Positions 2,345 through 23,198 of a stretch of DNA of 39,193 nt are shown here, piece after piece. Each line of letters starts with the position of its first letter. The first letter of the stretch is position 1. The translations under genes and the position numbers were made by a program. Origin of the DNA: Treponema sp. (GTDB lineage Bacteria; Spirochaetota; Spirochaetia; Treponematales; Treponemataceae); NCBI GenBank assembly GCA_017464425.1, contig JAFUDX010000022.1, forward strand, positions 1-39,193, read 5' to 3'. The notes under the pieces were generated by a model. That model was given only the letters and a program-made list of their open reading frames with translations. It ran no database searches and had not been told where the DNA came from.

Positions 2345-4105
2345 ATGAAAACTGAACTCTTAAAAACGGATGTGCTCATCATCGGCGGCGGAACGGCTGG
2401 CTGTTATGCGGCAATAACGCTCGGCTCGCACAGCGATATTTCGGTCATCATCGCAGAAAAAGCGAATGTCGCACGGAGCGGATGCCTTGCGGCAGGCGTG
2501 AATGCGCTCAATGCCTACATCACGGACGGTCATGTGCCGCAAGATTATGTCGATTATGCCTCACATGATGCCGACGGGATTGTGCGCGAAGATTTGCTTC
2601 TTTCGATTTGCGAGCGGTTAAATTCAGTAACTCACGATTTGGAAAAACGCGGGCTTGTCATTCTCAAAGACGAAAACGGAAACTATGTGAGCCGTGGCTG
2701 GCGAAATATCAAAATCAATGGCGAGAATATCAAGTCACTGTTGGCAAAAGGCGCGGCGGCTCAAAAAAATGTCAAAATCATAAATCATCTGAACATCACT
2801 GACCTTGCGACTGTGACCGAAAACGGAAAAACGCGCGTGGTCGGTGCGTACGGTTTTAGCGTGAATGAAAAAATTTCCTATTATATAGAAGCAAAAGCCG
2901 TTCTGATTGCGACGGGTGGAGCGGCAGGGTTGTACCGACCGAACAATCCCGGATTTTCGCGTCACAAGATGTGGTATCCGCCGTTCAACACGGGCGCGGG
3001 CTATGCGATGGGAATCCTCGCGGGTGCGGAAATGACCACATTTGAAATGCGATTCATCGCGCTTCGTTGCAAAGACACGATTGCCCCCACGGGAACGATT
3101 GCGCAGGGAGTCGGTGCAAAGCAGGTGAACGCAAAGGGCGAAATCTACGAAACGAAATACGGCTTAAAAACGAGCGAACGCTGCTGGGGCACGGTCGAAG
3201 AAAACCGAGCGGGAAACGGACCGTGCTTTCTCGCCACCAAAGGCATTTCAAGTGAAGCCGAGCAAGACTTATACAAAGCGTACTTGAACATGGCACCGAG
3301 CCAAACGCTCAAATGGCTCGAAAATGGCGTTGGTCCTGCAAGCGAGAGCGTTGAGGTCGAAGGAACGGAGCCGTACATCGTGGGCGGACACACCGCAAGC
3401 GGCTTTTGGGTGAACACCAAGCGCGAAACGACAATCAGCGGACTTTTTGCGGCAGGCGATGTCGCGGGTGGCGCACCGCAGAAGTATGTGACTGGCGCAC
3501 TCGCAGAAGGCGAAATCGCCGCAGAAAGCATTACGGAATTTTTGAAAATGCCACACGGATTCGATTTTCCTACGGAAAATCAACAACAAAAAAATCAAAA
3601 TGGGAATTGCGTAGCAATTCCGAATCCGCGTGACAATTCTAAGTTTTCTGAATATGAAAATCACTTGCTCTCAGGCGAGGAAAGTTCGTCAAATTCAAAC
3701 TTTGCACCATTTTCAACAGAGCAGATTGAAGAAGCCATGCAGAAAATTATGGACGAGTATGCGGGCGGAATCGCTACGGGCTATCGCTACAATGAAAGCC
3801 GCCTCATTCTTGCTTCACAAAAAATCGCGGAGTTACAGGCACTTGTTCCGAGCCTAAAGGCGAGCGATATGGACGATTTGTTGCGGATTTATGAAGTGCG
3901 GGAGCGGCTCATTGTGTGTCAGTCGCTGATTGCCCATCTTCGCGCACGAAAAGAAACGCGCTGGCACAGTTTTGGCGAGCATGCCGATTACCCCCAAAAG
4001 AGCGATGACGGCGTTTGCTATGTCAATTCCGTGTACAAAGACGGCGAAATCAAAATTATCACACGACCTCTCGTAACAGGAGCGCGCTATGAGCATCAGA
4101 ATTAA
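2345..4105 (+). CDS. aprA: Adenylylsulfate (APS) reductase alpha subunit-like flavoprotein
   Basis: A 586-residue FAD protein of the fumarate reductase/APS reductase superfamily. The N-terminal dinucleotide fold VLIIGGGTAGCYAA is at about 10-23, with ARSGCLAAGVNALN following it (AprA style). The C-terminal flavin block is GLFAAGDVAGGAPQKYVTGALAEG near 365-390. AprA reduces APS to sulfite plus AMP. Its neighbours fit: an overlapping two-cluster ferredoxin (AprB) and then ATP sulfurylase cysDN. With no sulfite-respiration genes around, an assimilatory role is inferred, as in some clostridia. Residues about 402-430 are a low-complexity stretch encoded by an inserted palindromic repeat; the following 20 residues are also low in complexity. 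A plain fumarate reductase is less likely given the context. Confidence 0.82.
   Translation: MKTELLKTDVLIIGGGTAGCYAAITLGSHSDISVIIAEKANVARSGCLAAGVNALNAYITDGHVPQDYVDYASHDADGIVREDLLLSICERLNSVTHDLEKRGLVILKDENGNYVSRGWRNIKINGENIKSLLAKGAAAQKNVKIINHLNITDLATVTENGKTRVVGAYGFSVNEKISYYIEAKAVLIATGGAAGLYRPNNPGFSRHKMWYPPFNTGAGYAMGILAGAEMTTFEMRFIALRCKDTIAPTGTIAQGVGAKQVNAKGEIYETKYGLKTSERCWGTVEENRAGNGPCFLATKGISSEAEQDLYKAYLNMAPSQTLKWLENGVGPASESVEVEGTEPYIVGGHTASGFWVNTKRETTISGLFAAGDVAGGAPQKYVTGALAEGEIAAESITEFLKMPHGFDFPTENQQQKNQNGNCVAIPNPRDNSKFSEYENHLLSGEESSSNSNFAPFSTEQIEEAMQKIMDEYAGGIATGYRYNESRLILASQKIAELQALVPSLKASDMDDLLRIYEVRERLIVCQSLIAHLRARKETRWHSFGEHADYPQKSDDGVCYVNSVYKDGEIKIITRPLVTGARYEHQN
3549..3635. repeat. 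Palindromic repeat element inserted in frame inside aprA
   Basis: Two hairpins face each other. CACACGGATTCG (3552-3563) leads into stem GATTTTCC (3563-3570), loop TAC, GGAAAATC (3574-3581). After a 21-bp A-rich spacer comes stem GGAATTGC (3603-3610), loop GTA, GCAATTCC (3614-3621), then CGAATCCGCGTG (3621-3632), the inverted copy of the first block (11 of 12). From 3552 to the end of GTGACA at 3635 is 84 bp, exactly 28 codons, with no stop. A related single-hairpin copy is at 24132-24180. Confidence 0.75.
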
Positions 4106-4403
4106 ACAGAACACCTGCATCGGCTGTTCAAGTTGCGTCGAAGTCTGCCCTGGAAATCTCATCAAACTGAATTCAGAAAAAAAAGCACACATCAAGCACG
4201 AACGGGATTGCTGGGGATGCACAAGTTGCGTAAAAGCGTGCCCCGTTCAAGCAATCAGCTTCTTTTTGGGTGCTGACATCGGTGGCAGAGGAGCAGAACT
4301 CACCGTCACCACAAAAGGCAGTGTGCGCACATGGACAGTCACCAAACGCGACGGCACCGTGCAGAACATCGTCGTTGACGGAAGCGTATCAAATAAGTAT
4401 TAG
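4089..4403 (+). CDS. aprB: APS reductase beta subunit-like ferredoxin, 2x[4Fe-4S]
   Basis: A 104-residue protein with two complete 4Fe-4S motifs: Cys10, 13, 16, 20 and Cys41, 44, 47, 51 (CxxCxxCxxxCP each). A 50-residue tail without cysteines follows. In AprAB the beta subunit feeds electrons to the flavin of AprA. Its ATG overlaps the end of aprA by 17 bp and has AGGAG six bases upstream, so the pair is translated together. It is shorter than dissimilatory AprB (about 150 aa), in keeping with the assimilatory type. A generic ferredoxin is the alternative, but the overlap with aprA argues against it. Confidence 0.82.
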   Translation: MSIRIKQNTCIGCSSCVEVCPGNLIKLNSEKKAHIKHERDCWGCTSCVKACPVQAISFFLGADIGGRGAELTVTTKGSVRTWTVTKRDGTVQNIVVDGSVSNKY

Positions 4404-4414
4404 ACATTACAACC

Positions 4415-4465
4415 TTGCATTATAATAGGTAATATGCTATATTAAACCTACTAACTCACTATGTA
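4415..4465 (+). promoter_or_regulatory. cysDN promoter with CymR-type operator
   Basis: The promoter has -35 TTGCAT (4415-4420), a 17-bp spacer, and -10 TATATT (4438-4443). The operator at 4445-4465 follows directly: arm AACCTAC, spacer TAACTCA, arm CTATGTA. It covers the expected transcription start, so binding would repress. An outward-facing half-site TAGGT lies in the spacer at 4426-4430. The cysD ATG is 20 bp downstream of the operator. Confidence 0.65.
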
Positions 4466-4484: not shown

Positions 4485-5387
4485 ATGAGTGAATTATCCC
4501 ATTTGGACGAACTGGAGGCAGAGGCGATTTACATTATCCGCGAAGTGGCGGCTGAATGTGAAAAGCCTGTCATGCTCTACTCAATCGGCAAGGACAGCTC
4601 GGTTATGCTGCATCTTGCGCTCAAAGCATTTTATCCTGAAAAACCGCCGTTTCCATTCCTACACATCGACACAACCTGGAAATTCCGCGAAATGATTGCC
4701 TTCCGTGACCATGTGGCAAAAAAATACGGTCTTGATATGCTCGTGTACACAAATCAGGAGGGCGTGAAGGCGGGCATAAATCCGTTTGACCACGGCTCTG
4801 CGTACACGGACATTATGAAAACGCAGGCACTAAAGCAAGCACTCACGCAATACGGCTTTACGGCGGCTTTTGGCGGAGGGCGGCGCGATGAAGAAAAATC
4901 TCGTGCAAAGGAGCGCGTCTTTAGCTTCAGAAATGCGGCTCAGGCGTGGGACCCAAAAAATCAGCGTCCTGAAATGTGGAAACTCTACAACACGCAGATT
5001 CACAAAGGCGAAAGCATCCGCGTGTTCCCGCTTTCAAACTGGACAGAAAAAGACATCTGGCAGTACATCAAGCGCGAAAATATTGAAATCGTGTCGCTCT
5101 ATTTTGCGGCGGAACGGCCTGTTATCGAGCGCGACGGTTCAATCATTTTGGTTGACGATGACCGCTTAAAACTTCGGGAAGGCGAAAAAATCCTGCATAA
5201 ATCAGTACGATTCCGAACGCTTGGCTGCTATCCGCTCACGGGTGGCGTTTACAGCACGGCAAATACACTTGACGAAATCATCGACGAGACATTGAGTGCC
5301 GTCACGAGCGAACGAACGAGCCGCGTGATTGACAAAGACGGCGGAGCGGCGAGCATGGAAAAACGCAAGCGGGAGGGCTACTTCTAA
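4485..5387 (+). CDS. cysD: Sulfate adenylyltransferase subunit 2
   Basis: A 300-residue CysD, the PP-loop ATP pyrophosphatase subunit of ATP sulfurylase. Together with CysN it makes APS from sulfate and ATP. The PP-loop [11 protein letters not shown] is near 32-42. Other family blocks follow: [29 protein letters not shown], and the C-terminal [14 protein letters not shown]. Length is normal. It has its own promoter and operator and overlaps cysN by one base (TAATG), so the subunits are coupled. It lies 81 bp downstream of aprB. Confidence 0.96.
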
Positions 5388-7024
5388 TGAAAGGACTTTT
5401 AAAATTCATCACCTGCGGAAGCGTTGACGACGGAAAATCAACGCTTATCGGGCATATTCTCTACGATGCAAAATTGTTGTACGCTGACCAGGAGCAGTCG
5501 CTTCAACTTGAATCAAAAGTCGGAAGCCGTGAAGGAAAAATCGACTATTCGCTTCTTCTCGACGGACTTATGGCGGAGCGCGAGCAGGGAATCACAATTG
5601 ATGTGGCGTACCGTTATTTTTCGACTGAAAAGCGAAGTTTCATCGTTGCGGACACTCCCGGACACGAAGAATACACGAGAAATATGGCGGTTGGCGCGTC
5701 ATTTGCCGACCTTGCGATTATTCTGGTCGATGTCGTGCATGGCGTTCTCGTGCAGACCCGCCGACATGCCCGCATTTGCTCGCTCATGGGAATCAAGCAC
5801 TTCATTTTTGCCGTCAATAAAATGGATTTGGCCGGCTATAGCGAGGCGCGATTCAATGAAGTCACCACACAAATCAATGAAATCATCACCGAACTTGATT
5901 TGCAGGATGTCGTGATTATTCCCGTAAGTGCGACTGAAGGCGACAACATCACAAAATCAAGCGAAAATATGGCGTGGTACACGGGAAAGACGATTCTTTC
6001 ACACTTGGAAACCGTTGAGACTCAGCACGCCGATGAAGAATCAGGTTTTTACCTTCCGATTCAGCGCGTATGCCGACCGAACCACGAATTCCGTGGATTT
6101 ATGGGGCAGATTGAGCGCGGACAAATCAAAATCGGAGACGAAATCACTACGCTCCCAAGCCGCGAAAAGGCAAAAGTCAAAAAAATCGTCGTCGGATTTG
6201 AAGAAAAAGATGAGGCTTCTCGCGGAAAAGCCGTGAACATCGTTCTTGACCGAGAAGTTGATGTGAGCCGTGGCTGTGTCTTCACCAAAGACCTTGAAAT
6301 TCCGATTGCAACTAGTTTTACCGCAACGATTCTCTGGATGGACGACAGCGAACTTGAAACGGGCAAGAATTTCTTCGTCAAAATCGGCACAAAGCAGATT
6401 CCGGGATTGGTGACGCACATTGACCATTCAATCGATGTGAACACGGGAGCTGAAAAAAAGTGCTCGTCTCTCAAAAAGAACGAAATCGCCGTCTGTACCA
6501 TCAGCGTGACCGAACCGATTGTGCTTGACGAATTCAAAAAAAATCACACGCTCGGTGAATTGATTTTGATTGACCGAATCAGCAACATGACCAGTGCCTG
6601 CGGCGTGGTCACAGCCGTTTCCGAATCAAACAAAGCCGTTTCGCTGGTCGTTGACAAAAATCGCCGTGCCGCCCTCAAATTGCAGACTCCGCTCATCGCA
6701 GAGTTCATTCTTGGGCAGAACGGCATTACGGAAGAATTCGTGTCGTCGGTTGAAAAGAAACTCGCTGACGCGGGTCGCCACACCTACCGCTACATGCCAA
6801 AATCTGACGAAGACTATCTTTCTGTCGCCCGCCACTTGTACGAGGCAGGACTTGTCGTGCTCCTCGAACTCGACGAACGCCAGAAAAAAGAGCACTCCGA
6901 ATCAGAGAGCGGGGCATGGTATACAGGCTGGCAGAAAAATCTTTCAGGCGCAAACGCAAGCGATGTCGCGGAAACGCTCCGCAAAAAGACCGCATTCGTA
7001 TCTGAGGAAGATTATTCGATTTAG
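5387..7024 (+). CDS. cysN: Sulfate adenylyltransferase subunit 1 (GTPase) with a degenerate APS-kinase tail
   Basis: A 545-residue CysN, the regulatory GTPase of ATP sulfurylase. The G1 loop GSVDDGKS is at 11-18, followed by DTPGHEEYTRNM and NKMD; EF-Tu-like domains 2 and 3 run to about 430. It is longer than plain CysN (about 475 aa). The extra 110 residues align by eye with APS kinase (CysC): a collapsed P-loop at FILGQNGIT, then KKLADAGRHTYRY (compare CysC ...LGRHTYLLDGDN) and VARHLYEAGLVVLLEL. The catalytic Lys/Ser of the P-loop and the DGDN block are gone. A dead CysC fits a pathway where AprAB reduces APS directly and PAPS is not needed. The last 4 bases overlap the convergent gene at 7021. 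Confidence 0.93.
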   Translation: MKGLLKFITCGSVDDGKSTLIGHILYDAKLLYADQEQSLQLESKVGSREGKIDYSLLLDGLMAEREQGITIDVAYRYFSTEKRSFIVADTPGHEEYTRNMAVGASFADLAIILVDVVHGVLVQTRRHARICSLMGIKHFIFAVNKMDLAGYSEARFNEVTTQINEIITELDLQDVVIIPVSATEGDNITKSSENMAWYTGKTILSHLETVETQHADEESGFYLPIQRVCRPNHEFRGFMGQIERGQIKIGDEITTLPSREKAKVKKIVVGFEEKDEASRGKAVNIVLDREVDVSRGCVFTKDLEIPIATSFTATILWMDDSELETGKNFFVKIGTKQIPGLVTHIDHSIDVNTGAEKKCSSLKKNEIAVCTISVTEPIVLDEFKKNHTLGELILIDRISNMTSACGVVTAVSESNKAVSLVVDKNRRAALKLQTPLIAEFILGQNGITEEFVSSVEKKLADAGRHTYRYMPKSDEDYLSVARHLYEAGLVVLLELDERQKKEHSESESGAWYTGWQKNLSGANASDVAETLRKKTAFVSEEDYSI

Positions 7025-11725: not shown

Positions 11726-11760
11726 AGCGTACAGATAATTACCTAGTTAGTCAATAGGTT
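11726..11760 (-). promoter_or_regulatory. cbiK-btuFCD promoter with CymR-type operator
   Basis: On the minus strand: -35 TTGACT (11754-11749), a 17-bp spacer, -10 TACGCT (11731-11726). The operator at 11740-11760 has arm TACCTAG, spacer TTAGTCA, arm ATAGGTT and covers the -35. It matches the site at 12614-12634 in 19 of 21 positions. The stop codon of the broken yeiH frame lies inside it. Confidence 0.7.
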
Positions 11761-12558: not shown

Positions 12559-12579
12559 TACCTACCGAAATAGTAGGTA
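12559..12579 (-). promoter_or_regulatory. CymR-type operator D1 (perfect palindrome)
   Basis: Arm TACCTAC, spacer CGAAATA, arm GTAGGTA: a perfect 7-bp inverted repeat with a 7-bp spacer. It lies in the leader between the yeiH-remnant promoter and its start, just before the AAGGAG ribosome-binding site. Confidence 0.65.
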
Positions 12580-12599: not shown

Positions 12600-12634
12600 A
12601 CGATACAACTTTTTACCTACTTAGTCAATAGGTA
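12600..12634 (-). promoter_or_regulatory. Promoter with CymR-type operator D2 (yeiH remnant)
   Basis: On the minus strand: -35 TTGACT (12628-12623), a 17-bp spacer, -10 TATCGT (12605-12600). The operator 12614-12634 (arm TACCTAC, spacer TTAGTCA, arm ATAGGTA) covers the -35, the same architecture as the cbiK promoter 870 bp away. It lies 7 bp after the stop of the rhodanese fusion gene. Confidence 0.65.
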
Positions 12635-12640
12635 AATAAT

Positions 12641-13720
12641 TTAAATAAACAGCGTCGCGTCTGATGTTTCGCAACTGCCCAAGAAGGTCGCAACGCCGCC
12701 GAGTTCCACGCCGTCGATGAATTCTTCTTTGCGGATTCCCATGATGTCCATGCTCATTTGGCAGGCAACGATTTTTACGCCGTGGTCGATTGCGCTCTGC
12801 ATGAGTTCTTCGAGCGAGGAGACGCTTTTGTTTTTCATGACCCAGCGAATCATTTTTGGTCCCATGCCGCCCATGTTCATGCGCGAAAGACCGAGTTTTT
12901 TTGATCCGCGTGGCATCATAAAGCCAAACATTTTTTCAATCAGATTTTTGCGGACACGCACTTTTTTTGCTTTACGCAAGATGTTCAAGCCCCAAAAAGT
13001 GAAGAAAAGCGTGACTTTTCGCCCCATTGCCGCCGCTCCGTTCGCCATGATGAACGCCGCCAACGCCTTGTCCAAGTCGCCGCTGAAAATCACGAAGGTT
13101 TTGTCGTTTCCGCCACTTCCCGCAACGGTCGTAAAATGCGCTTCTTTTTTGGTGACGAGTGCTTCAATCACGCCGTCTTTGATTTCGAGTTTTTCAAGGA
13201 CATTGCGTGTCCGCTGACACCACACGGCAATGTCGCTCGCAAAGGCATCTTCGGTCGCCTGAACGCGCACTTGCTCGCCGTCTTCAAGCGTTTTGAGCGC
13301 GTCGCTCACTTTTACGATTGGTCCTGGGCATTTCAATCCTTTTGCGTCGATAAAAAGCGGCTCTGATTTTTCAGCATTTGATTCAGCGTGGGCATTTTGA
13401 GCGGCAGGGAAACTTTGTGCTTCTTCAAGCGATTTTGTGCCACCCGCGAGATTGAATGCGCTGTAGCCGTGTTCCAAGAGAAGCTCTGCAATCTGCTCGC
13501 TTGTGTCACCTGTGCGGCACACGACGAGCACGGGCTTTTCTTTTGGAATGTCTGCGATATGCGCCGAAAGATTTTTGAGAAGGCTCGTAAACGGAATGTT
13601 CACCGTGCCTGCAAGCGGATGCACGATGATTTCAGCTTCGTCGCGCACATCGAGAATCGTGTAGTCCGATTTTTTGAGATTTTTGAATTCTTCTGCGGTG
13701 ATTGTCTTGATTTCTGCCAT
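12641..13720 (-). CDS. Rhodanese-TusA-DsrE sulfur-relay fusion protein
   Basis: A 359-residue three-domain protein. Rhodanese is at 1-100 with active Cys68 (VVCRTGDTS). A TusA/SirA domain is at about 121-190 with KGLKCPGPIVK (Cys131, CPxP motif). A DsrE/DrsE_2-type domain is at 205-359 (FVIFSGDLDKALAAFIMANGAAAMG), with Cys320 and Cys350. The same modules occur at the C-terminus of CoA-disulfide reductase-like proteins, but the FAD part is absent here. All three domains carry persulfide sulfur, so it should pass sulfane sulfur between partners. It starts 14 bp after the serine acetyltransferase gene and ends the encapsulin-side gene run, so it may relay sulfur to or from the nanocompartment. 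Confidence 0.9.
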   Translation of the reverse strand: MAEIKTITAEEFKNLKKSDYTILDVRDEAEIIVHPLAGTVNIPFTSLLKNLSAHIADIPKEKPVLVVCRTGDTSEQIAELLLEHGYSAFNLAGGTKSLEEAQSFPAAQNAHAESNAEKSEPLFIDAKGLKCPGPIVKVSDALKTLEDGEQVRVQATEDAFASDIAVWCQRTRNVLEKLEIKDGVIEALVTKKEAHFTTVAGSGGNDKTFVIFSGDLDKALAAFIMANGAAAMGRKVTLFFTFWGLNILRKAKKVRVRKNLIEKMFGFMMPRGSKKLGLSRMNMGGMGPKMIRWVMKNKSVSSLEELMQSAIDHGVKIVACQMSMDIMGIRKEEFIDGVELGGVATFLGSCETSDATLFI

Positions 13721-13734
13721 AGTCTGCTCCGATT

Positions 13735-14679
13735 TTATATGATATAAAACCAGTCTTCTTTTTGCTCAACTTCGGTCTTTTTGCCCGTTTTGATGTCGAG
13801 TTCCTGATTTTTGATGCTCACTTTTGCGTCAGGGGCGATTGATGTGGTGATGAAGGCGTTACTTCCGATGACCGCGTTCTTGCCGATGACGGTCTCACCG
13901 CCCAAAATTGAAGCACCTGCATAAATCGTCACATAATCTTCGATTGTGGGGTGGCGTTTTATGCCTTTGAGTTTTTGGCCCGCACGCGTTGAAAGCGCTC
14001 CAAGCGTAACGCCCTGATAGATTTTTACATGCTCACCGATGACCGCCGTTTCGCCAATCACAACGCCAGTTCCGTGGTCGATGAAAAAGTATTTTCCAAT
14101 CGTTGTGCCGGGATGGATGTCGATTCCCGTTTTTGAGTGGGCATATTCGGTCATAATGCGCGGAATGAGCGGCACATTGAGTTTGTACAGCTCGTGCGCG
14201 ATTCGGTTGATTGCCGTCGCCCAAATACCTGGGTAGGCAAGAATGATTTCGTTTTTATTGAATGCGGCAGGGTCGCCGTCAAAGGCTGCCTCAACATCGG
14301 TTGCCAAATACTCGCGCACGACCAAAAGCCGCTGCAAGAAGACTCGAATCACATGCTGAGTCTTTTCTCTGACATTCGCACCGACAACGCCGTTTTTGTC
14401 CAAACATTCGGGACACTGAAAGAGGGCAAGCGTGATTTGCGCTTCAAGATTATAGACGACATCTTCAATCAATGAATTTATGTAGCTCGAAAGATTATAA
14501 AATTTGAAATTCTTTTCACGGAAATAACCGGGGAACACAATTCGGAGCAATTTACGCGTTATTTCGTGTATCACATCAACATCTGGCTGGCTGTTAAACT
14601 CCACTTCCTCAATATGCACATCATTTTTGTAATTCGCAAGGAGCGTATCGACGATTTCGCCAGTTTCATAGTTTTCCAT
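13735..14679 (-). CDS. cysE: Serine O-acetyltransferase
   Basis: A 314-residue enzyme making O-acetylserine from serine and acetyl-CoA. The left-handed beta-helix hexapeptide region spans about 190-295, with the catalytic block DIHPGTTIGKYFFIDHGTGVVIGE and GVTLGALSTRAGQKLKG, then IYAGASILGGETVIGKNAVIGSNA. The long alpha-helical N-terminus is the type found in anaerobes and in encapsulin-linked EpsC-like enzymes. No cysteine synthase (cysK/cysM) is in the window. AAGGAAAA, 4 nt before the ATG, follows directly on a terminator hairpin, so expression depends on readthrough or an unseen promoter. Confidence 0.95.
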   Translation of the reverse strand: MENYETGEIVDTLLANYKNDVHIEEVEFNSQPDVDVIHEITRKLLRIVFPGYFREKNFKFYNLSSYINSLIEDVVYNLEAQITLALFQCPECLDKNGVVGANVREKTQHVIRVFLQRLLVVREYLATDVEAAFDGDPAAFNKNEIILAYPGIWATAINRIAHELYKLNVPLIPRIMTEYAHSKTGIDIHPGTTIGKYFFIDHGTGVVIGETAVIGEHVKIYQGVTLGALSTRAGQKLKGIKRHPTIEDYVTIYAGASILGGETVIGKNAVIGSNAFITTSIAPDAKVSIKNQELDIKTGKKTEVEQKEDWFYII

Positions 14680-14692
14680 AAGATTTTCCTTG

Positions 14693-14718
14693 ATAAAAAC
14701 AAGGGGGCAAAAGCCCCC
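14693..14718 (-). terminator. Rho-independent terminator immediately before the cysE ribosome-binding site
   Basis: On the minus strand: GGGGGC (14718-14713), loop TTTT, GCCCCC (14708-14703), then TTGTTTTTAT. The T-run ends about 14 nt before the cysE ATG, leaving room only for the Shine-Dalgarno. It therefore separates the desulfurase from cysE and could act as an attenuator. Confidence 0.75.
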
Positions 14719-14733
14719 AAATTGTTAGAGGGA

Positions 14734-14859
14734 GCCTCGAAAAACTTCAGTTTTTCGAGGCAACTCTGAAAATGCGATGTTTTAATTCCTGCTATTTTCA
14801 GGAATTAAAACTCGTCAGGAAGTTCGGAAAATCGCCGAAGGCGAGTTTCCGAACTTCCT
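14734..14859. repeat. Three consecutive long perfect hairpins between desulfurase and cysE
   Basis: Hairpin 1: GCCTCGAAAAAC (14734-14745), loop TTCA, GTTTTTCGAGGC (14750-14761). Hairpin 2: 13-bp stem, GTTTTAATTCCTG (14779-14791) with CAGGAATTAAAAC (14799-14811). Hairpin 3: 14-bp stem, AGGAAGTTCGGAAA (14817-14830) with TTTCCGAACTTCCT (14846-14859), with an inner CGCC/GGCG hairpin. The last touches the desulfurase stop codon. Together with the terminator at 14693-14718 they fill the whole gap. Confidence 0.75.
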
Positions 14860-16684
14860 AGAATGTATGGAGCACCCGGACAAGCGCGTCGATGTCGTCT
14901 GGCGAATTGTAAATTGCCAGAGTCGGGCGCACGCTTCCTTCGTACCCGTAATGGCGCAAAATCGGCTGAGCACAGTGATGACCCGTGCGGACTGCGATTC
15001 CATAGGCATTGAGCCGCTGTCCGACTTCCTCATCATCGTGACCGTCGAGTTTGAATGAGAGAACGCCCGCTTTGTTTGCCGCCTCGCCAATCAGATGAAG
15101 ACCTTTGACCGTTTTCATTTCCTTGATGGCATACTGCGTCAATTCGTGTTCCCACTGCGCGACTGCCGGCATTCCGATGCTTTCAAGATATTCGAGTGCC
15201 GCACCCAAGCCAACCGCGTCCGCGATAGAGCCAGTGCCCGCCTCGAATTTGTTCGGAGCCGGATTGTAAATCGTGCGCTCGAAAGTGACATCGGCAATCA
15301 TGTTGCCGCCGCCGTGATACGGTCGTGCCGCTTCAAGAAGCTCTTTTTTGCCGTACACGCCGCCGATTCCCGTAGGTCCGTAGACTTTGTGCCCTGAGAA
15401 CACATAGAAATCCGCGTCGCTCGCGCTCACATTGACCGGCAAATGCGCAATCGACTGAGCACCGTCAATCAAAATGCGAACGCCGTGCCGATGGGCGATG
15501 GCAATGAGTTCTTCCACAGGCGTGATTGTGCCCGTTACATTTGAAACCTGCGTGACCGAGACGAATTTCGTGCGCTTGGTGAACAATTTTTCGTATTCGC
15601 CAAGAAGAAGCTCGCCCTTGTCGTTCACAGGAATGACTTTGATGACCGCGCCCGTTTCTTCGGCAATGAGCTGCCACGGAACGATGTTCGCGTGATGCTC
15701 CAAAATGCTCACGATGATTTCGTCACCGGGGAGCAAAGTGGGCTTCACATACGCGTTCGCCACAAGGTTGATTGCCTCTGTCGTGCCGCGCACAAAAACG
15801 ATGTTGCTGCTTGACGGCGCACCGATAAACCTGGCAACGATGTCTCGTGCATTTTCATAAGCGTCAGTCGAGCGAGCCGCGAGCGTGTGCGCCCCACGGT
15901 GAACATTTGAGTTTTCGTGCTCGTAGTAGTACGAAAGGCGGTCAATCACCTGCCGCGGTCGCTGAGTTGTCGCGCCGTTGTCGAGCCAGACCAAATTGTT
16001 TCCGTTGATTTTTTCCTGCAAAATCGGGAAATCATCACGAATCTGCTGCAAGGTCTTTGAGCCGATGATGATGCTTGAATTGCGGCTGCTTCCGCTCGTG
16101 CTTGAAACGGATTTTTTGTCTCCGCCCAGAGAAGTCGGCGCGTTGATTGCCCGTGCGTTCTTCTGGCTTTCTTCCTGCGAGTAAACTTTTGGCGAATAGC
16201 TGACCTGCGAATTCTCAATCTTCGGATTTCCCTGCACCTCTCGCGGCTGAATGTCGTTCGGAGAAGCAACGCTGTTCACTTCGCCCAAGAACGGGTCTTC
16301 AAACGACGCGAAACTTTCTGCTTTCGGCACATTTCCGTACGTCGAAAGCGTGTTTTCCGCGTGATTCAAGTACTCGCCGTAAGACGGGCTTTCCTCGCTC
16401 GCAAAATGAGAATAATCATCTGCCACAACAGGAACAGAAGGCTCTCTGCCTGCTTCCGCCGCTGCCGCTGATTGCCCCTGAGAACCGAAATTGCTGAAAT
16501 ATTCCTGACCGAACCGAGTCGGGCAGAGTCCAGCATTTGCCTGCACTTCAGGTACTAAATCAGGGAACAGCGAATTTGCAAGCGACTCCAATTCCTGTGC
16601 GCTCGGCAAAAAATTGTCTTGCAATTTTTTGTAAGGCAATTCATTGCCGCCAAAATTGTATGCCTGTTCGTTAGTTGTAATCAT
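14858..16684 (-). CDS. SufS-like cysteine desulfurase with encapsulin-loading N-terminal extension
   Basis: A group II (SufS-like) cysteine desulfurase of 608 residues; plain SufS is about 410. From about residue 213 the PLP fold is complete: VWLDNGATTQRP, EHHANIVPW, the PLP lysine in FSGHKVYGPTGIGG (about 433), and active Cys571 in RTGHHCAQP. It takes sulfur from L-cysteine as a persulfide. The first 210 residues are a Ser/Asn/Gln/Pro-rich disordered region. LPSAQELESLANSLFPD at about 26-42 matches the conserved LARLANALF-type block of desulfurases packaged by family 2A encapsulins. The gene overlaps the shell gene by 14 bp. I chose the ATG at 16684; a GTG at 16693 is in frame and closer to GAGG. 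Confidence 0.95.
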   Translation of the reverse strand: MITTNEQAYNFGGNELPYKKLQDNFLPSAQELESLANSLFPDLVPEVQANAGLCPTRFGQEYFSNFGSQGQSAAAAEAGREPSVPVVADDYSHFASEESPSYGEYLNHAENTLSTYGNVPKAESFASFEDPFLGEVNSVASPNDIQPREVQGNPKIENSQVSYSPKVYSQEESQKNARAINAPTSLGGDKKSVSSTSGSSRNSSIIIGSKTLQQIRDDFPILQEKINGNNLVWLDNGATTQRPRQVIDRLSYYYEHENSNVHRGAHTLAARSTDAYENARDIVARFIGAPSSSNIVFVRGTTEAINLVANAYVKPTLLPGDEIIVSILEHHANIVPWQLIAEETGAVIKVIPVNDKGELLLGEYEKLFTKRTKFVSVTQVSNVTGTITPVEELIAIAHRHGVRILIDGAQSIAHLPVNVSASDADFYVFSGHKVYGPTGIGGVYGKKELLEAARPYHGGGNMIADVTFERTIYNPAPNKFEAGTGSIADAVGLGAALEYLESIGMPAVAQWEHELTQYAIKEMKTVKGLHLIGEAANKAGVLSFKLDGHDDEEVGQRLNAYGIAVRTGHHCAQPILRHYGYEGSVRPTLAIYNSPDDIDALVRVLHTF

Positions 16685-17624
16685 AGTATTCACCTACCTC
16701 TACATCTTCGAGAACTGCAATCGCATCATCAGCGAGAATTGCTGCAGAGCAGTACAAAGACAAGAGATAAGATGCAACACCTTTGTCGTCAATGCCACGG
16801 AATCGGACTGAAAGACCGCGTGAATGTTCGTTCTTCAAGCCAGCCTGGAAGAGACCGATAACGCCGCGTTTTGCTTCGCCCGTGCGAACGAGAAGGATGT
16901 TTGTCTTTCCGCTCTGAGACTGCGGATTTTTGAGACCGTCAACAAGCAATTTGTCGGTCGGGATAAGCGGAATGCCGCGCCACAAGATGAATGTGCCGCC
17001 CGCGATGTTTGTTGTTGCCGGGGGAACGCCACGGCGTGTGCACTCGCGCTCAAAAGCCGCGATTGCGCGTGGGTGAGCGAGGAAGAAGCTCGGCTCTTTC
17101 CACACTTTTGAGATAAGCTCGTCCAAATCGTCTGGAGTTGGGCGACCGTCTGCACGGAGCGGCTGAATGCGCTGTGACTCAGGCACATTCTTCAAGAGAC
17201 CGTAATCATCGTTGTTGATGAGCTGGCTTTCCTGTCGTTCGCGCAAAGAATCGATTGCAAGCGCGAGCTGTTCCTGCACCTGATCATACGGAGAAGAATA
17301 CACATCTTCGATGGCTGTGTTTACATTGATGATAGTAGAAATTGAGTTCAAGCGGTATTCGCGCGGTTCTGTCTCGTATTCGACATAGCCGTCAGGAATG
17401 ATGTCAGATTTTTTTGTCTGTGAGCAGAGCACATCAAGCGGAGTTTCGCCTTCAACGACCTTGTTTACGCGGAAAATTCCTGTTTCAAGACCTTTGAATT
17501 CGAGGACTTTTGTGAGCCATTTCGGTGTGAGCGCACCATACTGTGGCTTGGTTTTCGTGACATTGGCAAGGTTATACGCTGCCTTTGCACCCAATGCGTT
17601 AATTTCGTCTTTTTTGTCTGCCAT
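16671..17624 (-). CDS. srpI: Family 2A encapsulin shell protein (SrpI-like)
   Basis: A 317-residue HK97-fold nanocompartment shell protein. It closely follows the Synechococcus SrpI pattern from memory: VTKTKPQYGALTPKWL near 22-37, IFRVNKVV, YVEYETEPREYRLNSIST, EDVYSSPYDQVQEQLALAIDS, TPDDLDELISKVWKEPSFF, TRRGVPP, WRGIPLIPTDK, LSVRFRGIDDKGVASYLLSLY, and the ending ADDAIAVLEDVEVGEY. There is no cyclic-nucleotide-binding domain, so it is 2A rather than 2B. The start has GGAGGT 8 nt upstream. The next gene is the cargo desulfurase, overlapping its end. Such shells around desulfurases accumulate elemental sulfur in bacteria studied so far; that role here is inferred. It is easily mis-annotated as a hypothetical or phage protein. 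Confidence 0.96.
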   Translation of the reverse strand: MADKKDEINALGAKAAYNLANVTKTKPQYGALTPKWLTKVLEFKGLETGIFRVNKVVEGETPLDVLCSQTKKSDIIPDGYVEYETEPREYRLNSISTIINVNTAIEDVYSSPYDQVQEQLALAIDSLRERQESQLINNDDYGLLKNVPESQRIQPLRADGRPTPDDLDELISKVWKEPSFFLAHPRAIAAFERECTRRGVPPATTNIAGGTFILWRGIPLIPTDKLLVDGLKNPQSQSGKTNILLVRTGEAKRGVIGLFQAGLKNEHSRGLSVRFRGIDDKGVASYLLSLYCSAAILADDAIAVLEDVEVGEYYDYN

Positions 17625-17710
17625 GTTAGCTGACCTCCATTTTTGCCGCTTCAGAACCTACTGAAACCAGCTGATTTATATAAAATCACCGTCTGTGACG
17701 ATGTTTTTGC

Positions 17711-19174
17711 CTACAACCACGCGCCTTCGTGCGGAAGAATGATGTCTTTTGCCGCCTCTATGCCGCCCTTCAAGTTGTACATCGGACCTGTGTAGCCCGC
17801 CTCACGCAACGTGTTGATTGCGAGAATGCTTCGCTTTCCCTCACGGCACACGAAAATCGTGTCAATCGTGGGGTCGAGTTCCTTTTGACGACGAGCAAGC
17901 TGACCGATTGGAATGACGATTGCGTCAGGGAATCGGCTGATTGCCCGCTCATGCGGTTCACGCACATCAATAATCGTCATTTTGTCGCCACGGGAAATGC
18001 GCTCCGCAAGAGCCGATGCCTCAATTCCTTCAACGGGAATTTCATTGTCAGCCTGTTTGAGACCGCAGAATTCCTCGTAGTCGAAATCTTCAACTTCCGT
18101 AATCGACGGCTTTAGTCCACAAATTGGGCAATTATCGTCCTTTGCGATTTTGACTTTTGATGAAGTGAGATTCCATGAATCAAAGATAAAGCTCTCTCCG
18201 ACAAGAGCCTCTCCTCCGCCCACAATCAATTTTAAGACTTCAGTTGCCTGAATGCTTCCGATGATGCCGGGGAGCGAGCTGATAACGCCACCCTCCGCGC
18301 AAGTGGGAACAAGGCCACTTGGTGGCGGTGACGGGAATGCACAGCGGTAGCACGGTCCTTGCGTAGAATCAAAAACAGAAACCTGACCTTCAAACTGATA
18401 CACCGCACCAAACACATCGGGCTTTTTGAGCAACACGCACGCATCGTTAATCAAGTAGCGAGCCTTGTAATTGTCCGTGGCATCGGCAACGATGTCATAA
18501 TCCGCAATGATTTCTTCTATATTTTCTGCTTCGAGCTTGACATTGTAGGTTTCGACCGTGATTGACTGGTTGATTCCTTTGATTTTGTCTTTCGCTGACA
18601 TGACTTTCGGACGCTTCAAATCACGCTTTCCGTACAAAATCTGATTCTGGAGATTGTGCAGGTTCACCACATCAAAATCAGCAAGCCCGATTGTGCCCAC
18701 GCCCGCCGCCGCAAGATATTGGGCAAGCACCGAGCCAAGCGAGCCAAGCCCGCAAATCAAGACTTTTGCCGCCTTAATGCTTTTCTGCCCCTTTACGCCG
18801 ATTTCGCGGAGCATAAGATGTTTTGAAAATCGCTCGATTTCCGCGTCATCGAGTTTGGCTTCCTTTCGCCGTTCTTGCGGAATGACAGATTCAACGGGAG
18901 CACCGCCCGCAATCGAAGGCAAAAGAAGCACCGTGTCACCGTCGTGCAAGCGGGTTTCTGTTTTTTGAAGCTGATTGATGTTCACATCGTTTACGAAAAT
19001 ATTTATGAACGGACGCAATTCGCCGTTTTCATCGTACAATGCTTTTTTAAAATCGGGATATTCATCGGTGAGCGCGTTGAGCACACCCAACACCGTGTCT
19101 TTTTCAAATGAGAAGGAAGAAGTGCGTTCAGTAAATGTGCGCAAAGTCGCTGAAATCAAAACTTTTACAGACAT
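17711..19174 (-). CDS. MoaD/ThiS-ThiF/MoeB-rhodanese fusion (sulfur-carrier activating protein)
   Basis: A 487-residue three-domain protein. Residues 1-91 are a ubiquitin-like sulfur carrier ending in an internal di-glycine (SIAGG, Gly90-Gly91). Residues about 108-360 are an E1/MoeB domain: ICGLGSLGSVLAQYLAAAGVG, LADFDVVNLHNLQNQ, VADATDNYKARY, catalytic Cys292 (CAEGGVISSLPG), and zinc cysteines 275, 278, 349, 352. Residues about 384-487 are a rhodanese with active Cys443 (FVCREGKRS). E1/rhodanese proteins (MoeZ) adenylate a C-terminal Gly-Gly and load it with sulfur. Here the GG is buried in the chain, so a cut after Gly91 is required, and the preceding gene encodes a JAMM protease. It overlaps that gene by 10 bp; the encapsulin gene starts 86 bp after its stop. 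Confidence 0.93.
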   Translation of the reverse strand: MSVKVLISATLRTFTERTSSFSFEKDTVLGVLNALTDEYPDFKKALYDENGELRPFINIFVNDVNINQLQKTETRLHDGDTVLLLPSIAGGAPVESVIPQERRKEAKLDDAEIERFSKHLMLREIGVKGQKSIKAAKVLICGLGSLGSVLAQYLAAAGVGTIGLADFDVVNLHNLQNQILYGKRDLKRPKVMSAKDKIKGINQSITVETYNVKLEAENIEEIIADYDIVADATDNYKARYLINDACVLLKKPDVFGAVYQFEGQVSVFDSTQGPCYRCAFPSPPPSGLVPTCAEGGVISSLPGIIGSIQATEVLKLIVGGGEALVGESFIFDSWNLTSSKVKIAKDDNCPICGLKPSITEVEDFDYEEFCGLKQADNEIPVEGIEASALAERISRGDKMTIIDVREPHERAISRFPDAIVIPIGQLARRQKELDPTIDTIFVCREGKRSILAINTLREAGYTGPMYNLKGGIEAAKDIILPHEGAWL

Positions 19175-19587
19175 ACAATTTCCTCCTCAGTAAAATTCGC
19201 GTTTTTTGTTCCGACGATAAAGGCAAAACTTTTGACCGCCGCCGCCTTTCCGCCCAAAACGGAAACAATCGGGTACGAAAAACCGGGAATCGCGAAAGCC
19301 CGGTCTTTTTGGGAAGCGACCGCCTCAAAATCCGCGTGCGAGTGATAAAAACCAATCACATCAAGATTTTGTGAAGCCGCCGCTTGCTCCGCTTTTTGCA
19401 ATTCCGCCTGAGAGACAGCAAATTCCGTTCGCTTGAACTCAGCAGAATTTTCAATAGGGTAGAGTGCATTCACATTTCGTACCTCACCCTCACTGTTTCC
19501 CAACAGAACGCCAATGCACTCTTCGGGAAACGCTTGTTCGCCATGTTGCTTTATATGAGCCAAAAGCTCTTTTTCTAGTTTTAACAT
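19165..19587 (-). CDS. JAMM/MPN-domain metalloprotease (Mec-like)
   Basis: A protein of about 140 residues with the complete JAMM zinc motif: a Glu in PEECIGVLLG (about 22) and HSH-x7-S-xx-D in GFYHSHADFEAVASQKD (His82, His84, Ser92, Asp95). The bacterial relative Mec cleaves cysteine or a peptide from the sulfur-carrier protein CysO after its Gly-Gly. Its natural partner here is the internal Gly90-Gly91 of the fusion encoded next, overlapping by 10 bp. I chose ATG 19587 because GAGAGG lies 7 nt upstream; the GTG at 19593 is only one base from it. First gene of the encapsulin operon, behind the best promoter and operator of the window. Confidence 0.93.
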   Translation of the reverse strand: MLKLEKELLAHIKQHGEQAFPEECIGVLLGNSEGEVRNVNALYPIENSAEFKRTEFAVSQAELQKAEQAAASQNLDVIGFYHSHADFEAVASQKDRAFAIPGFSYPIVSVLGGKAAAVKSFAFIVGTKNANFTEEEIVCL

Positions 19588-19630: not shown

Positions 19631-19664
19631 TACCTAGTATATTACTAGGGATAATAAATGTCAA
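19631..19664 (-). promoter_or_regulatory. Promoter and CymR-type operator of the JAMM-encapsulin operon
   Basis: On the minus strand: -35 TTGACA (19664-19659), a 17-bp spacer, -10 TATACT (19641-19636), both essentially consensus. The operator 19631-19651 has arm TACCTAG, spacer TATATTA, arm CTAGGGA; its core CCTAGTA-TAT-TACTAGG is perfectly palindromic. It covers the -10, so binding should block the promoter. Confidence 0.78.
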
Positions 19665-22696: not shown

Positions 22697-23122
22697 TTAT
22701 ATGCAGTAATCAAACCCGTTAAATTGCCGATTTTTTTCGGCAATTTGTTCGAGTGTTGACGAATCCACATAATCGTTTATTACATTCTCAAATTCTTTCC
22801 AAAAATCATCATTTCCAACGGAACTGACCGCGTTTGAATCTGTAAGTGAACGCGGATTTAAATCGCCTTCCATTGCCCGCAAAATTTCTCCAACGGTATA
22901 TTTATCAGGCTGCCGTGAAAGTTTATAACCGCCGTTATTGCCCCGTAGCCCAACGACCAACCCAGACTTACTGAGCTGAATAAGGATTTGCTCCAAATAT
23001 TTTGCCGAAAGATTGTGCCGATGTGAAAGCAATTTGAGCGGAATGTATTTTTCTGGATCCTGCTCAGCAAGCTCCGTCATTATCAGAAGAGCGTATTGTC
23101 CTTTTGTCGAAATTTTAAGCAT
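22697..23122 (-). CDS. cymR: Rrf2-family regulator, CymR-like
   Basis: 141 residues. The winged-helix N-terminus MLKISTKGQYALLIMTELAEQD, with LSAKYLEQILIQLSKSGLVVGLRGNNGGYKLSR, is typical Rrf2. The C-terminus WKEFENVINDYVDSSTLEQIAEK closely follows CymR of Firmicutes. The three cysteines that bind Fe-S in IscR/NsrR are absent; only Cys140 is present. CymR represses cysteine and sulfur genes, with cysteine synthase as co-factor. Here it probably binds the seven 21-bp sites found in the sulfur promoters, including its own at 23148. Ribosome-binding site GAGGG. It converges on dctP with a 16-bp gap. Confidence 0.9.
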   Translation of the reverse strand: MLKISTKGQYALLIMTELAEQDPEKYIPLKLLSHRHNLSAKYLEQILIQLSKSGLVVGLRGNNGGYKLSRQPDKYTVGEILRAMEGDLNPRSLTDSNAVSSVGNDDFWKEFENVINDYVDSSTLEQIAEKNRQFNGFDYCI

Positions 23123-23147: not shown

Positions 23148-23198
23148 TACCTAGTAGGTAGATAGGTATATTTTACCCGACATTTCCCGTTTTTTCAA
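23148..23198 (-). promoter_or_regulatory. cymR promoter with autoregulatory operator
   Basis: On the minus strand: -35 TTGAAA (23198-23193), a 17-bp spacer, -10 TAAAAT (23175-23170). The operator 23148-23168 has arm TACCTAG, spacer TAGGTAG, arm ATAGGTA and covers the expected start site. The spacer itself completes a second overlapping palindrome, CTACCTA-G-TAGGTAG (23147-23161). Confidence 0.72.

What the first reader, a model, noticed from the sequence alone, without database searches (positions are those of the whole stretch)
14858..19587. A family 2A encapsulin sulfur nanocompartment operon in a spirochaete
One minus-strand operon encodes a JAMM protease, a MoaD-E1-rhodanese fusion, an SrpI-like shell protein and a desulfurase with a long disordered N-terminus; serine acetyltransferase and a rhodanese-TusA-DsrE fusion follow. 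Shell and cargo overlap by 14 bp. Established: family 2A shells package desulfurases and store elemental sulfur in bacteria studied so far. New here is the coupling to a JAMM/E1 sulfur-carrier module and to assimilatory APS reduction under one operator set, in a treponeme. I infer a cell that buffers cysteine sulfur in a protein shell and releases it through carrier proteins.
Basis: partly seen in the sequence, partly recalled or inferred. Interest (0 to 1): 0.93.

Follow-up and report, generated by a model that had tools for sequence, protein, structure and literature searches.

The report
Sulfur shell with ubiquitin-like carrier operon
A gut spirochaete carries in one gene cluster a family 2A encapsulin shell protein, the cysteine-stripping enzyme predicted to be packed inside it, and a ubiquitin-like sulfur carrier with its activating enzyme and protease; the same gene set recurs in other gut bacteria and would likely let cells bank cysteine sulfur and rebuild amino acids from it.

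Summary
The 317-aa protein at 16671-17624(-) is a family 2A encapsulin shell (NF041162 475.7 bits, cut-off 380). A SufS-type desulfurase with a long N-terminal extension overlaps it by 14 bp. Upstream are a JAMM protease and a carrier(CysO/MoaD-like)-E1-rhodanese fusion.

The coupling is not a treponeme oddity. E1 precedes the shell in 76 of 76 testable relatives (Treponema, Fibrobacter, Clostridia, Aliarcobacter) and JAMM in 72 of 74; 0 of 9 ordinary family 2A loci have them. The carrier's GG is kept although buried in the fusion (66 of 66), and all seven free carriers read have 1-15 residues after it, so JAMM very likely unmasks a pro-carrier. In 32 of 70 relatives a cysteine synthase or MetY-type enzyme stands just before JAMM. 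MoaE is absent in 11 of 11 shell genomes tested, against molybdopterin.

Best reading: a sulfur-storage shell joined to protein-thiocarboxylate cysteine/homocysteine synthesis, under a CymR-like regulon (7 operators, 0.17 expected). Each half is known; the searches made found no paper joining them. Storage, cleavage and sulfur transfer are untested.

The parts
19636..19664 (-). promoter-like site TTGACA-17-TATACT
   Evidence: 11 of 12 consensus matches; a consensus match only
19632..19650 (.). operator ACCTA-N9-TAGGG (1 mismatch) over the -10, 45 bp before the JAMM start
19165..19587 (-). JAMM metalloprotease
   Evidence: Prok-JAB 8e-17; E23 and H82-S-H84-x7-S92-x2-D95
17711..19174 (-). carrier(ThiS/MoaD/CysO-like)-E1-rhodanese fusion, 487 aa
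   Evidence: ThiS, ThiF, Rhodanese; 31-row alignment
18902..19174 (-). carrier domain, residues 1-91, ending in A89-G90-G91; predicted JAMM cut after G91
   Evidence: GG kept in 66 of 66 full-length fusions; best PDB match 3dwg_C; residues 88-93 under pLDDT 50
16671..17624 (-). family 2A encapsulin shell protein, 317 aa
   Evidence: NF041162 475.7 bits, cut-off 380; 8t6r 6.5e-110, SrpI 6x8m 2.7e-104
16911..16943 (-). shell insertion (about residues 228-238) typical of the JAMM-linked lineage
14858..16684 (-). SufS-type cysteine desulfurase, predicted cargo, 608 aa
   Evidence: TIGR01979 535.6 bits over cut-off 475.1; NF041166 769.5 bits under cut-off 800
16559..16594 (-). N-terminal motif ELESLANSLFPD (residues 31-42), like the published LARLANEFFS
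14680..14857 (-). gap with several strong stem-loops, last one terminator-like
   Evidence: MFE -88.6 kcal/mol, z -11.0; terminator-like site 14718-14703
13735..14679 (-). serine O-acetyltransferase, EpsC-type
   Evidence: NF041874 152.2 bits over cut-off 150; C-terminal Ile
12641..13720 (-). rhodanese-TusA-DsrE2 fusion
12615..12633 (.). operator, exact
12560..12578 (.). operator, exact
11741..11759 (.). operator, exact, 23 bp before the CbiK-like gene
22697..23122 (-). Rrf2 regulator, closest to CymR, predicted to bind the operators
   Evidence: Rrf2 4.9e-29; NF047409 CymR 109.4 bits, under cut-off 195
23149..23167 (.). operator, exact, 27 bp before the Rrf2 gene
2345..4105 (+). adenylylsulfate reductase alpha (AprA)
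   Evidence: NF005331 868.1 bits, cut-off 557
4089..4403 (+). AprB-like ferredoxin
   Evidence: TIGR02060 56.9 bits, under cut-off 135.65
4412..4430 (.). operator, 1 mismatch, before cysD
4446..4464 (.). operator, 1 mismatch, before cysD
4485..5387 (+). sulfate adenylyltransferase CysD
   Evidence: TIGR02039 over cut-off
5387..7024 (+). sulfate adenylyltransferase CysN
   Evidence: TIGR02034 529.2 bits, cut-off 336.1

Best explanation
The operon encodes a family 2A encapsulin shell protein, a desulfurase with the N-terminal motif shared by shell-associated desulfurases, a JAMM protease and a CysO-like carrier fused to its E1-rhodanese enzyme, which together would likely pass cysteine sulfur out of the shell as a carrier-bound thiocarboxylate and use it to rebuild cysteine or homocysteine. 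Steps: (1) shell and desulfurase genes overlap by 14 bp (shown) and the desulfurase is loaded by its N-terminal extension (predicted). (2) The desulfurase turns cysteine into alanine and leaves sulfur as persulfide, polysulfide or elemental sulfur in or at the shell (inferred from studied relatives). (3) The sulfur moves to Cys443 of the rhodanese domain, or by way of the rhodanese-TusA-DsrE2 fusion (inferred). (4) JAMM cuts after the internal Gly91 and frees the carrier's GG (predicted). (5) The E1 domain adenylates the GG and the rhodanese sulfur makes it a thiocarboxylate (inferred). (6) A PLP sulfhydrylase (CysM- or MetY-type, next to JAMM in many relatives, elsewhere in this genome) adds the sulfur to O-acetylserine made by SAT, or to O-acetylhomoserine, and JAMM cuts the product off the carrier (inferred). 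(7) A CymR-like Rrf2 repressor turns the set on when cysteine runs low (predicted).
For: Family 2A shell over cut-off and close to solved 2A shells; desulfurase beside it in 79 of 79 testable loci; N-terminal motif 1 in 68 of 73 by a loose pattern. E1 in 76 of 76 and JAMM in 72 of 74 testable loci in three to four phyla, against 0 of 9 ordinary family 2A loci. Internal GG in 66 of 66 fusions; 7 of 7 free carriers have residues after AGG; cut site modelled as flexible. Precedents: MoaX needs cutting at its internal GG (PMC4326299); a JAMM cuts a MoaD-MoaE fusion (PMC8832034). Sulfhydrylase just before JAMM in 32 of 70 loci and in 5 of 5 loci of a second spirochaete family. Carrier's best PDB match is 3dwg_C. 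MoaE 0 of 11; ThiG 0 in this genome. Operators 7 against 0.17 expected.
Against: No biochemical step was tested. In the window's lineage no sulfhydrylase stands in the operon and no CysM-type enzyme was found, only a CysK-type one. The E1 keeps CxxC pairs (C275/C278, C349/C352), which PMC3227635 assigns to MoeBR; MoeBR did not sulfurate CysO. SAT is missing in 12 of 71 testable loci and JAMM in L008 and L011. No sulfhydrylase was found before JAMM in 38 of 70. The second SrpI-cargo motif is absent in 73 of 73. In S. elongatus, knock-outs of shell or cargo gave no growth defect (PMC8049743). The 80 genome loci are the closest of 495, so the linkage counts are biased to near relatives.
Confidence: 0.55

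Rival explanations
1. Two independent sulfur-starvation modules share one operon: the shell with its desulfurase stores or scavenges sulfur, and the JAMM-carrier-E1 set makes cysteine or homocysteine with sulfur from sulfate reduction. No sulfur passes between them.
For: Carrier-E1-JAMM operons with cysteine synthase or sulfate-reduction genes exist without mention of a shell (PMC1779556). This genome has a second carrier-E1-JAMM cluster without a shell and with sulfite reductase and MetY-like genes. A common regulon would keep both together.
Against: The E1 beside the shell carries a rhodanese domain, fit to take sulfur from a desulfurase, while the shell-less cluster's E1 has none. The order JAMM-E1-shell-desulfurase is kept in 72 of 74 testable loci, and the five shell-less spirochaete E1-rhodanese loci examined have no JAMM or carrier match beside them.
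Confidence: 0.28
2. The carrier is a protein tag: it is conjugated to shell, cargo or other proteins (as archaeal SAMPs are) and JAMM takes it off, controlling assembly, loading or turnover.
For: JAMM's best NCBIfam match is the archaeal desampylase (68 bits, under cut-off 130) and the carrier also matches SAMP1 (56.4 bits, under cut-off 60).
Against: A rhodanese domain and sulfhydrylase neighbours point to sulfur chemistry; nothing found here speaks for conjugation.
Confidence: 0.06
3. The carrier-E1 set serves molybdopterin or thiamine synthesis.
For: Domain names (ThiS, MoaD, MoeB) and database names such as MoeB.
Against: MoaE in 0 of 11 shell-bearing genomes tested, control 11 of 14; ThiG absent here, over cut-off in only 2 of 11.
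Confidence: 0.03
4. The 317-aa protein is a phage capsid or another HK97-like protein, not an encapsulin.
For: HK97-like folds are shared by both (established knowledge).
Against: Family 2A model over cut-off, solved family 2A shells at 1e-93 to 1e-110, desulfurase partner in 79 of 79 testable loci. Its own fold could not be modelled here.
Confidence: 0.01

Closest known systems
SrpI/CyD family 2A encapsulin of Synechococcus elongatus (PMC8049743; PDB 6x8m)
   Same: Shell family, SufS-type desulfurase partner with extended N-terminus and a LARLANEFFS-like motif; cysteine synthase, SAT and rhodanese near by.
   Different: There the rhodanese is separate and no JAMM, carrier or E1 lies within 8 kb; the gut shell has a 7-8 residue insertion and its cargo lacks the second motif AASPYYFLDG.
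Family 2A desulfurase operons surveyed in PMC8346489 (passages)
   Same: Shell, desulfurase, SAT and rhodanese.
   Different: ThiF, JAMM and Spirochaet- do not occur in that main text; its supplement was not seen.
Mycobacterial CysO-CysM-Mec-MoeZR cysteine synthesis (PMC3227635, passages)
   Same: CysO-like carrier, JAMM protease, E1-rhodanese; CysM-type synthase in the operon of several relatives.
   Different: Here the carrier is fused to its E1 and masked; E1 keeps CxxC pairs; an encapsulin and desulfurase join the set; no operonic CysM in the window.
Carrier/JAB/E1 operons 4b-4e of Iyer et al. 2006 (PMC1779556, passages)
   Same: JAB, E1-rhodanese, carrier, with cysteine synthase (4c) or sulfate-reduction genes and O-acetylhomoserine sulfhydrylase (4e).
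   Different: No encapsulin or desulfurase named in the passages seen; 4e is closer to this genome's other cluster on contig C46.
Cut carrier fusions MoaX and Deinococcus MoaD-MoaE
   Same: Carrier with an internal GG that must be cut to work; a JAMM does so in Deinococcus.
   Different: The fused partner is MoaE, not the carrier's own E1; the pathway is molybdopterin.

Membership tests
Family 2A encapsulin | Shell protein over the curated family 2A model cut-off | tested here: met
   NF041162 475.7 bits, cut-off 380; 2B model 365.8, under its cut-off 400
Family 2A encapsulin | No cNMP-binding domain (that would be 2B) | tested here: met
   317 aa, only PF19307 matched
Family 2A encapsulin | Adjacent cysteine desulfurase with extended N-terminus | tested here: met
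   about 210 residues before the catalytic domain; 79 of 79 testable loci have the desulfurase
Family 2A encapsulin | Cargo over the cut-off of the family 2A cargo model | tested here: not met
   NF041166 769.5 bits, cut-off 800; the catalytic part matches, the early N-terminus does not
Family 2A encapsulin | Cargo N-terminal motif LARLANEFFS (in most SrpI-type cargos) | tested here: met
   ELESLANSLFPD in the window; 68 of 73 relatives by a loose pattern
Family 2A encapsulin | Cargo N-terminal motif AASPYYFLDG (in most SrpI-type cargos) | tested here: not met
   0 of 73; a YSPxVxS-like motif in 49 of 73. Reported for most, not all, so it marks a variant
Family 2A encapsulin | About 25-nm T=1 particle loaded with desulfurase | not testable with these tools
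   shell model failed (pLDDT 32.8)
Family 2A encapsulin | Sulfur accumulation in the shell | not testable with these tools
   recalled for a studied relative; the paper was not in the library
CysO-type protein-thiocarboxylate cysteine pathway | Carrier with C-terminal GG | tested here: met
   GG kept in 66 of 66 fusions, but internal; best PDB match 3dwg_C
CysO-type protein-thiocarboxylate cysteine pathway | JAMM protease with intact metal site | tested here: met
   HxHx7SxxD in 60 of 60
CysO-type protein-thiocarboxylate cysteine pathway | MoeZR-type E1-rhodanese, mostly without CxxC pairs | tested here: not met
   E1-rhodanese present but CxxC pairs kept (C278, C349, C352 invariant in 31)
CysO-type protein-thiocarboxylate cysteine pathway | CysM-type synthase in the operon | tested here: not met
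   absent in the window; present in the operon of 8 of 11 shell-bearing spirochaete genomes tested, all under the cysM cut-off
CysO-type protein-thiocarboxylate cysteine pathway | Thiocarboxylate formation and use | not testable with these tools
   needs mass spectrometry
Molybdopterin synthesis (MoaD/MoeB) | MoaE present in the genome | tested here: not met
   PF02391 in 0 of 11 shell-bearing genomes, control 11 of 14

The most novel reading that the evidence does not exclude
A reversible cysteine battery: in gut bacteria an encapsulin shell is the dedicated sulfur source of a ubiquitin-like carrier. The shell charges by stripping sulfur from cysteine, and discharges only through a pro-carrier that JAMM must unmask, which rebuilds cysteine or homocysteine. 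It would supply the kind of sulfur donor that was named as unknown for CysO-type synthesis, and would be a bacterial protein organelle with its own ubiquitin-like partner.
Probability: 0.35. Interest if true: 0.87.

Novelty: new variant of a known kind. Interest (0 to 1): 0.72.

Why it matters
How sulfur leaves a family 2A shell, and for what, is open; in the one cyanobacterium whose passages I read, knock-outs of shell or cargo gave no growth defect (PMC8049743). A large gut lineage keeps shell, desulfurase, a rhodanese-bearing E1, its carrier, JAMM and often a cysteine or homocysteine synthase together, which names both an exit route and an endpoint. From the other side, the sulfur source for thiocarboxylation of CysO was stated in 2011 to be unknown (PMC3227635); this operon offers a candidate donor for the analogous system here that can be tested in isolates such as Treponema zioleckii and Pseudobutyrivibrio (L002, L048, L049). 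The masked carrier suggests a simple control point.

Tried and rejected
Shell structure prediction gave no usable model (pLDDT 32.8 with 18 near-identical rows), so I ran no fold search and the shell's fold was not tested beyond sequence. A survey of other phyla by whole-genome search was not possible because the centre must be a genome handle; other phyla rest on the 80 closest of 495 loci and on plasmid records. Molybdopterin, thiamine and phage-capsid readings were considered and rejected. Rfam at gathering threshold and a tRNA scan found nothing in the window. The hairpins before SAT are not a repeat family by the patterns tested: one match in this genome, and among 203 loci only the three that hold this stretch of this species or its near twin.

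Caveats on counts. L128 is very probably the same contig as L002 (both 43,140 bp) and was counted twice among the 85 loci. L083-L085 (window and repeated genomes) were left out of the tree, but are among the 84 shells; L132 repeats L001 and was left out. In one search, 9 of 85 loci had less than 1.7 kb upstream, 11 less than 2.6 kb upstream, 6 less than 1.9 kb downstream and 14 less than 3.5 kb downstream, and were not counted for the gene concerned. In L101 the counted E1 gene is cut from its rhodanese by an insertion sequence, and in L130 the carrier is a separate gene and the desulfurase match covers only residues 286-605. The cysM, AprB, CymR, desampylase and cysE model matches are under their cut-offs; SAT does pass the EpsC model. 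MetY and cysteine-synthase labels are by BLAST similarity only. The desulfurase cysteine motif was found by one pattern in 63 of 73 and read by eye in the other 10. Motif 1 misses 5 of 73: in four a variant can be read, in L061 none. In one search the shell insertion could not be read by my pattern in 1 of 9 ordinary shells (L207); L038 misses the strict pattern by one letter.
Full report
What is there. The minus strand from 19587 to 12641 encodes, in order, a JAMM protease, a carrier-E1-rhodanese fusion, a family 2A encapsulin shell, a SufS-type desulfurase, a serine acetyltransferase (SAT) and a rhodanese-TusA-DsrE2 fusion. JAMM and E1 genes overlap by 10 bp, shell and desulfurase by 14 bp; E1 and shell are 86 bp apart, desulfurase and SAT 178 bp. 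The shell passes the curated family 2A model (475.7 bits, cut-off 380) and matches solved family 2A shells, best 8t6r (6.5e-110) and SrpI 6x8m (2.7e-104). The closest genome locus, with an identical shell, is a Treponema assembly from roe-deer reticulum (L001).

Working parts look intact. The JAMM has E23 and HxHx7SxxD (the latter in 60 of 60 relatives). The desulfurase has the PLP-lysine motif SGHK in 73 of 73 relatives and the catalytic-cysteine motif in 73 of 73 (63 by pattern, 10 by eye). The rhodanese cysteine is invariant in 31 aligned fusions (C443) and present in 66 of 66 full-length fusions. SAT ends in isoleucine in 59 of 59 relatives longer than 280 residues; that such a tail binds cysteine synthase is established for CysE and recalled here.

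The pro-carrier. The ubiquitin-like domain ends in A89-G90-G91, but inside the 487-residue fusion. A GG after A or V is kept in 66 of 66 full-length fusions, and the distance from it to an E1 helix motif varies from 21 to 35 residues. In the AlphaFold model (mean pLDDT 79.5, pTM 0.62, 31 sequences) residues 88-93 are one of five stretches below pLDDT 50, so the site is probably flexible. In seven relatives the carrier is a separate gene, and all seven have residues after AGG: I (Aliarcobacter L101), RR (L130), TSRG, IQG, RRG, SPARTAIRIKAP and AFFDRFMGGGGKWEK (L163-L167). A carrier needs a free GG to be adenylated (established for MoaD, ThiS and CysO), so masking is the rule and JAMM is the likely unmasking enzyme. 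Precedents: MoaX, a MoaD-MoaE fusion, must be cut at its internal GG (PMC4326299, abstract and passages; protease unidentified there), and a Deinococcus JAMM cuts such a fusion (PMC8832034, passages). One database protein holds JAMM, carrier, E1 and rhodanese in one chain (P0087).

Conservation of the linkage. A scan of genomes of 84,980 species found 495 stretches encoding a relative of the shell; the 80 closest were kept. With the Aliarcobacter plasmid and four Treponema stretches I examined 85 loci (one a likely duplicate). Counting only loci with enough sequence, an E1 gene precedes the shell in 76 of 76, a carrier domain in 76 of 76, JAMM in 72 of 74 (not in L008 and L011); the desulfurase follows in 79 of 79 and SAT in 59 of 71. 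These are near relatives by choice. A less biased test is the model search of one phylum: 9 of 392 Spirochaetota genomes have a shell over cut-off (10 any match). Eight of the nine also have an E1-rhodanese over 450 bits; the exception (G357) has two tandem longer shells, SAT and desulfurase, and no JAMM or E1 match within the 16 kb read. Nine genomes have such an E1; the one without a shell (G202) and four with weaker matches have no JAMM, carrier, shell or desulfurase match beside it at E 1e-6. In the family sample 6 of 195 genomes have the shell and the same 6 have the close E1 (over 500 bits, next best 294). As a control, 0 of 9 ordinary family 2A loci (two Azospirillum, Synechococcus, Methylosinus, Variovorax, two Burkholderia, Paraburkholderia, Acinetobacter) have a JAMM, carrier or full E1 match within about 8 kb; Synechococcus has a rhodanese match only. 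A 7-8 residue shell insertion follows the linkage: 83 of 84 shells by strict pattern (some from repeated genomes), the five of the second spirochaete family (one read in part) and Aliarcobacter, against none of 8 readable ordinary shells.

What the module makes. Just before JAMM, on the same strand and within 400 bp, 25 of 70 testable loci have a MetY-type gene, 7 a cysteine synthase, 11 a second (Hcy-type) JAMM, 3 a sulfite reductase, 3 CysN, 1 a ThiF gene, and 20 none of the queries used; the window's own lineage (L001, L002) is among the 20. In a second spirochaete family all five loci read CysM-type synthase, JAMM, free carrier, E1-rhodanese, shell, desulfurase; L164 has a gap of about 2.4 kb before the shell, L167 has the synthase cut by the contig end, and SAT was found in 3 of 5. 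The carrier's best solved relative is 3dwg_C (8.6e-10), listed as 9.5 kDa culture filtrate antigen cfp10A, which I recall as CysO. MoaE is absent from 11 of 11 shell-bearing spirochaete genomes tested and found in 11 of 14 controls; ThiG is absent in this genome and over cut-off in 2 of 11. Cysteine or homocysteine synthesis is thus the likeliest endpoint.

Regulation. ACCTA-N9-TAGGT with at most 1 mismatch occurs 7 times in the window (0.17 expected; 0 of 100 shuffles reach 7), each 14-69 bp before cysD, the CbiK-like gene, the PF03601 gene, JAMM or the Rrf2 gene. The whole genome has 13 exact sites and none of the reversed pattern: four in the window, one before a second SufS-type desulfurase on C18, two by a methionine-type (NIL-domain) ABC transporter and NlpA lipoprotein on C44, and six on C46, the first before a MetY-like gene that heads a cluster with sulfite reductase, TusA, ThiS-like carrier, E1 without rhodanese and JAMM, the others among nitrogenase-like, radical SAM, binding-protein and SAM-synthetase genes; not each of these was assigned to a gene. 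The operon's own site overlaps the -10 of an 11-of-12 promoter match, which suits repression. The Rrf2 protein is closest to CymR but under that model's cut-off.

History. In a tree of 87 shells the 82 gut shells form one group with Aliarcobacter as nearest outsider. Treponema and Fibrobacter shells form a supported set (95/96) nested among Lachnospiraceae and other Clostridia shells, with one Lachnospiraceae shell inside it. With 85-93% shell identity to loci of other phyla this points to horizontal transfer in the gut. E1, desulfurase and SAT are typically less alike (about 60, 67 and 55%) and JAMM least (24-42% outside Treponema).

Known and new. SAT and rhodanese were reported as the most enriched accessory genes of family 2A desulfurase operons (PMC8346489, passages). 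Carrier-E1-JAMM operons with cysteine synthase or sulfate-reduction genes were reported in 2006 (PMC1779556, passages). The mycobacterial CysO, CysM, Mec+, MoeZR pathway is known, with its sulfur source then unknown (PMC3227635, passages). I found no paper joining the two: 'encapsulin' with 'thiocarboxylate' 0 papers, with 'ThiF' 0 papers, with 'rumen' 1 paper, on pig mucosa by its title; of 190 papers holding two of six terms, none of the 20 listed holds 'encapsulin'. ThiF and JAMM do not occur in the main texts of PMC8049743 and PMC8346489. The library holds open-licence papers only and no supplements were seen, so this is weak evidence of novelty.

Against my reading. The window's own genome lacks an operonic synthase. 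The E1 keeps CxxC pairs that the mycobacterial study assigns to MoeBR, which did not sulfurate CysO. The second SrpI-type cargo motif is absent and the cargo model's cut-off is missed. The module could be a neighbour by co-regulation only. I therefore hold the combined mechanism at 0.55; family 2A membership of the shell itself is close to certain.

Noticed in passing
14680-14857 (-): The desulfurase-SAT gap folds into several strong stem-loops (MFE -88.6 kcal/mol, z -11.0), the last terminator-like; it may set a shell-cargo to SAT ratio.
   Followed up: partly
11751-12546 (-): A PF03601 membrane-protein gene (C-terminal piece 2e-24; N-terminal piece matched nothing), with operators before it, is split between two frames; both pieces also lie side by side in L001 and L132.
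   Followed up: partly
L119:9362-18178 and L120 (own genome, contig C46): A second carrier-E1-JAMM cluster with sulfite reductase and MetY-like genes, followed by nitrogenase-like genes, variant radical SAM genes and binding proteins, with six copies of the same operator.
   Followed up: partly
19165-19587 against L001: JAMM is only 82% identical to its twin in L001, where the shell is 100% and the E1 fusion 96% identical; fast change or recombination at the operon's 5' end.
   Followed up: no
L168:6003-11491: Another spirochaete (G357) has SAT, two tandem longer (2B-like) shells and a desulfurase, without JAMM or E1 match.
   Followed up: no
L101:4013-14527: On an Aliarcobacter cibarius plasmid the linked operon is interrupted by two insertion sequences, one between E1 and its rhodanese.
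   Followed up: no
L048, L049, L053, L017, L020: In some Pseudobutyrivibrio and Fibrobacter the AprAB and CysDN genes lie within 10 kb of the shell operon, as in the window.
   Followed up: no
24226-29679 (-): An 1817-aa predicted lipoprotein with a bacterial Ig-like domain near the regulon; function not studied.
   Followed up: no
phage collection records CAKLQH020000001.1 and CAKLQF020000001.1: Two records named Acinetobacter phage (about 329 and 379 kb) hold a family 2A shell and sufS; they may be mislabelled bacterial DNA.
   Followed up: no
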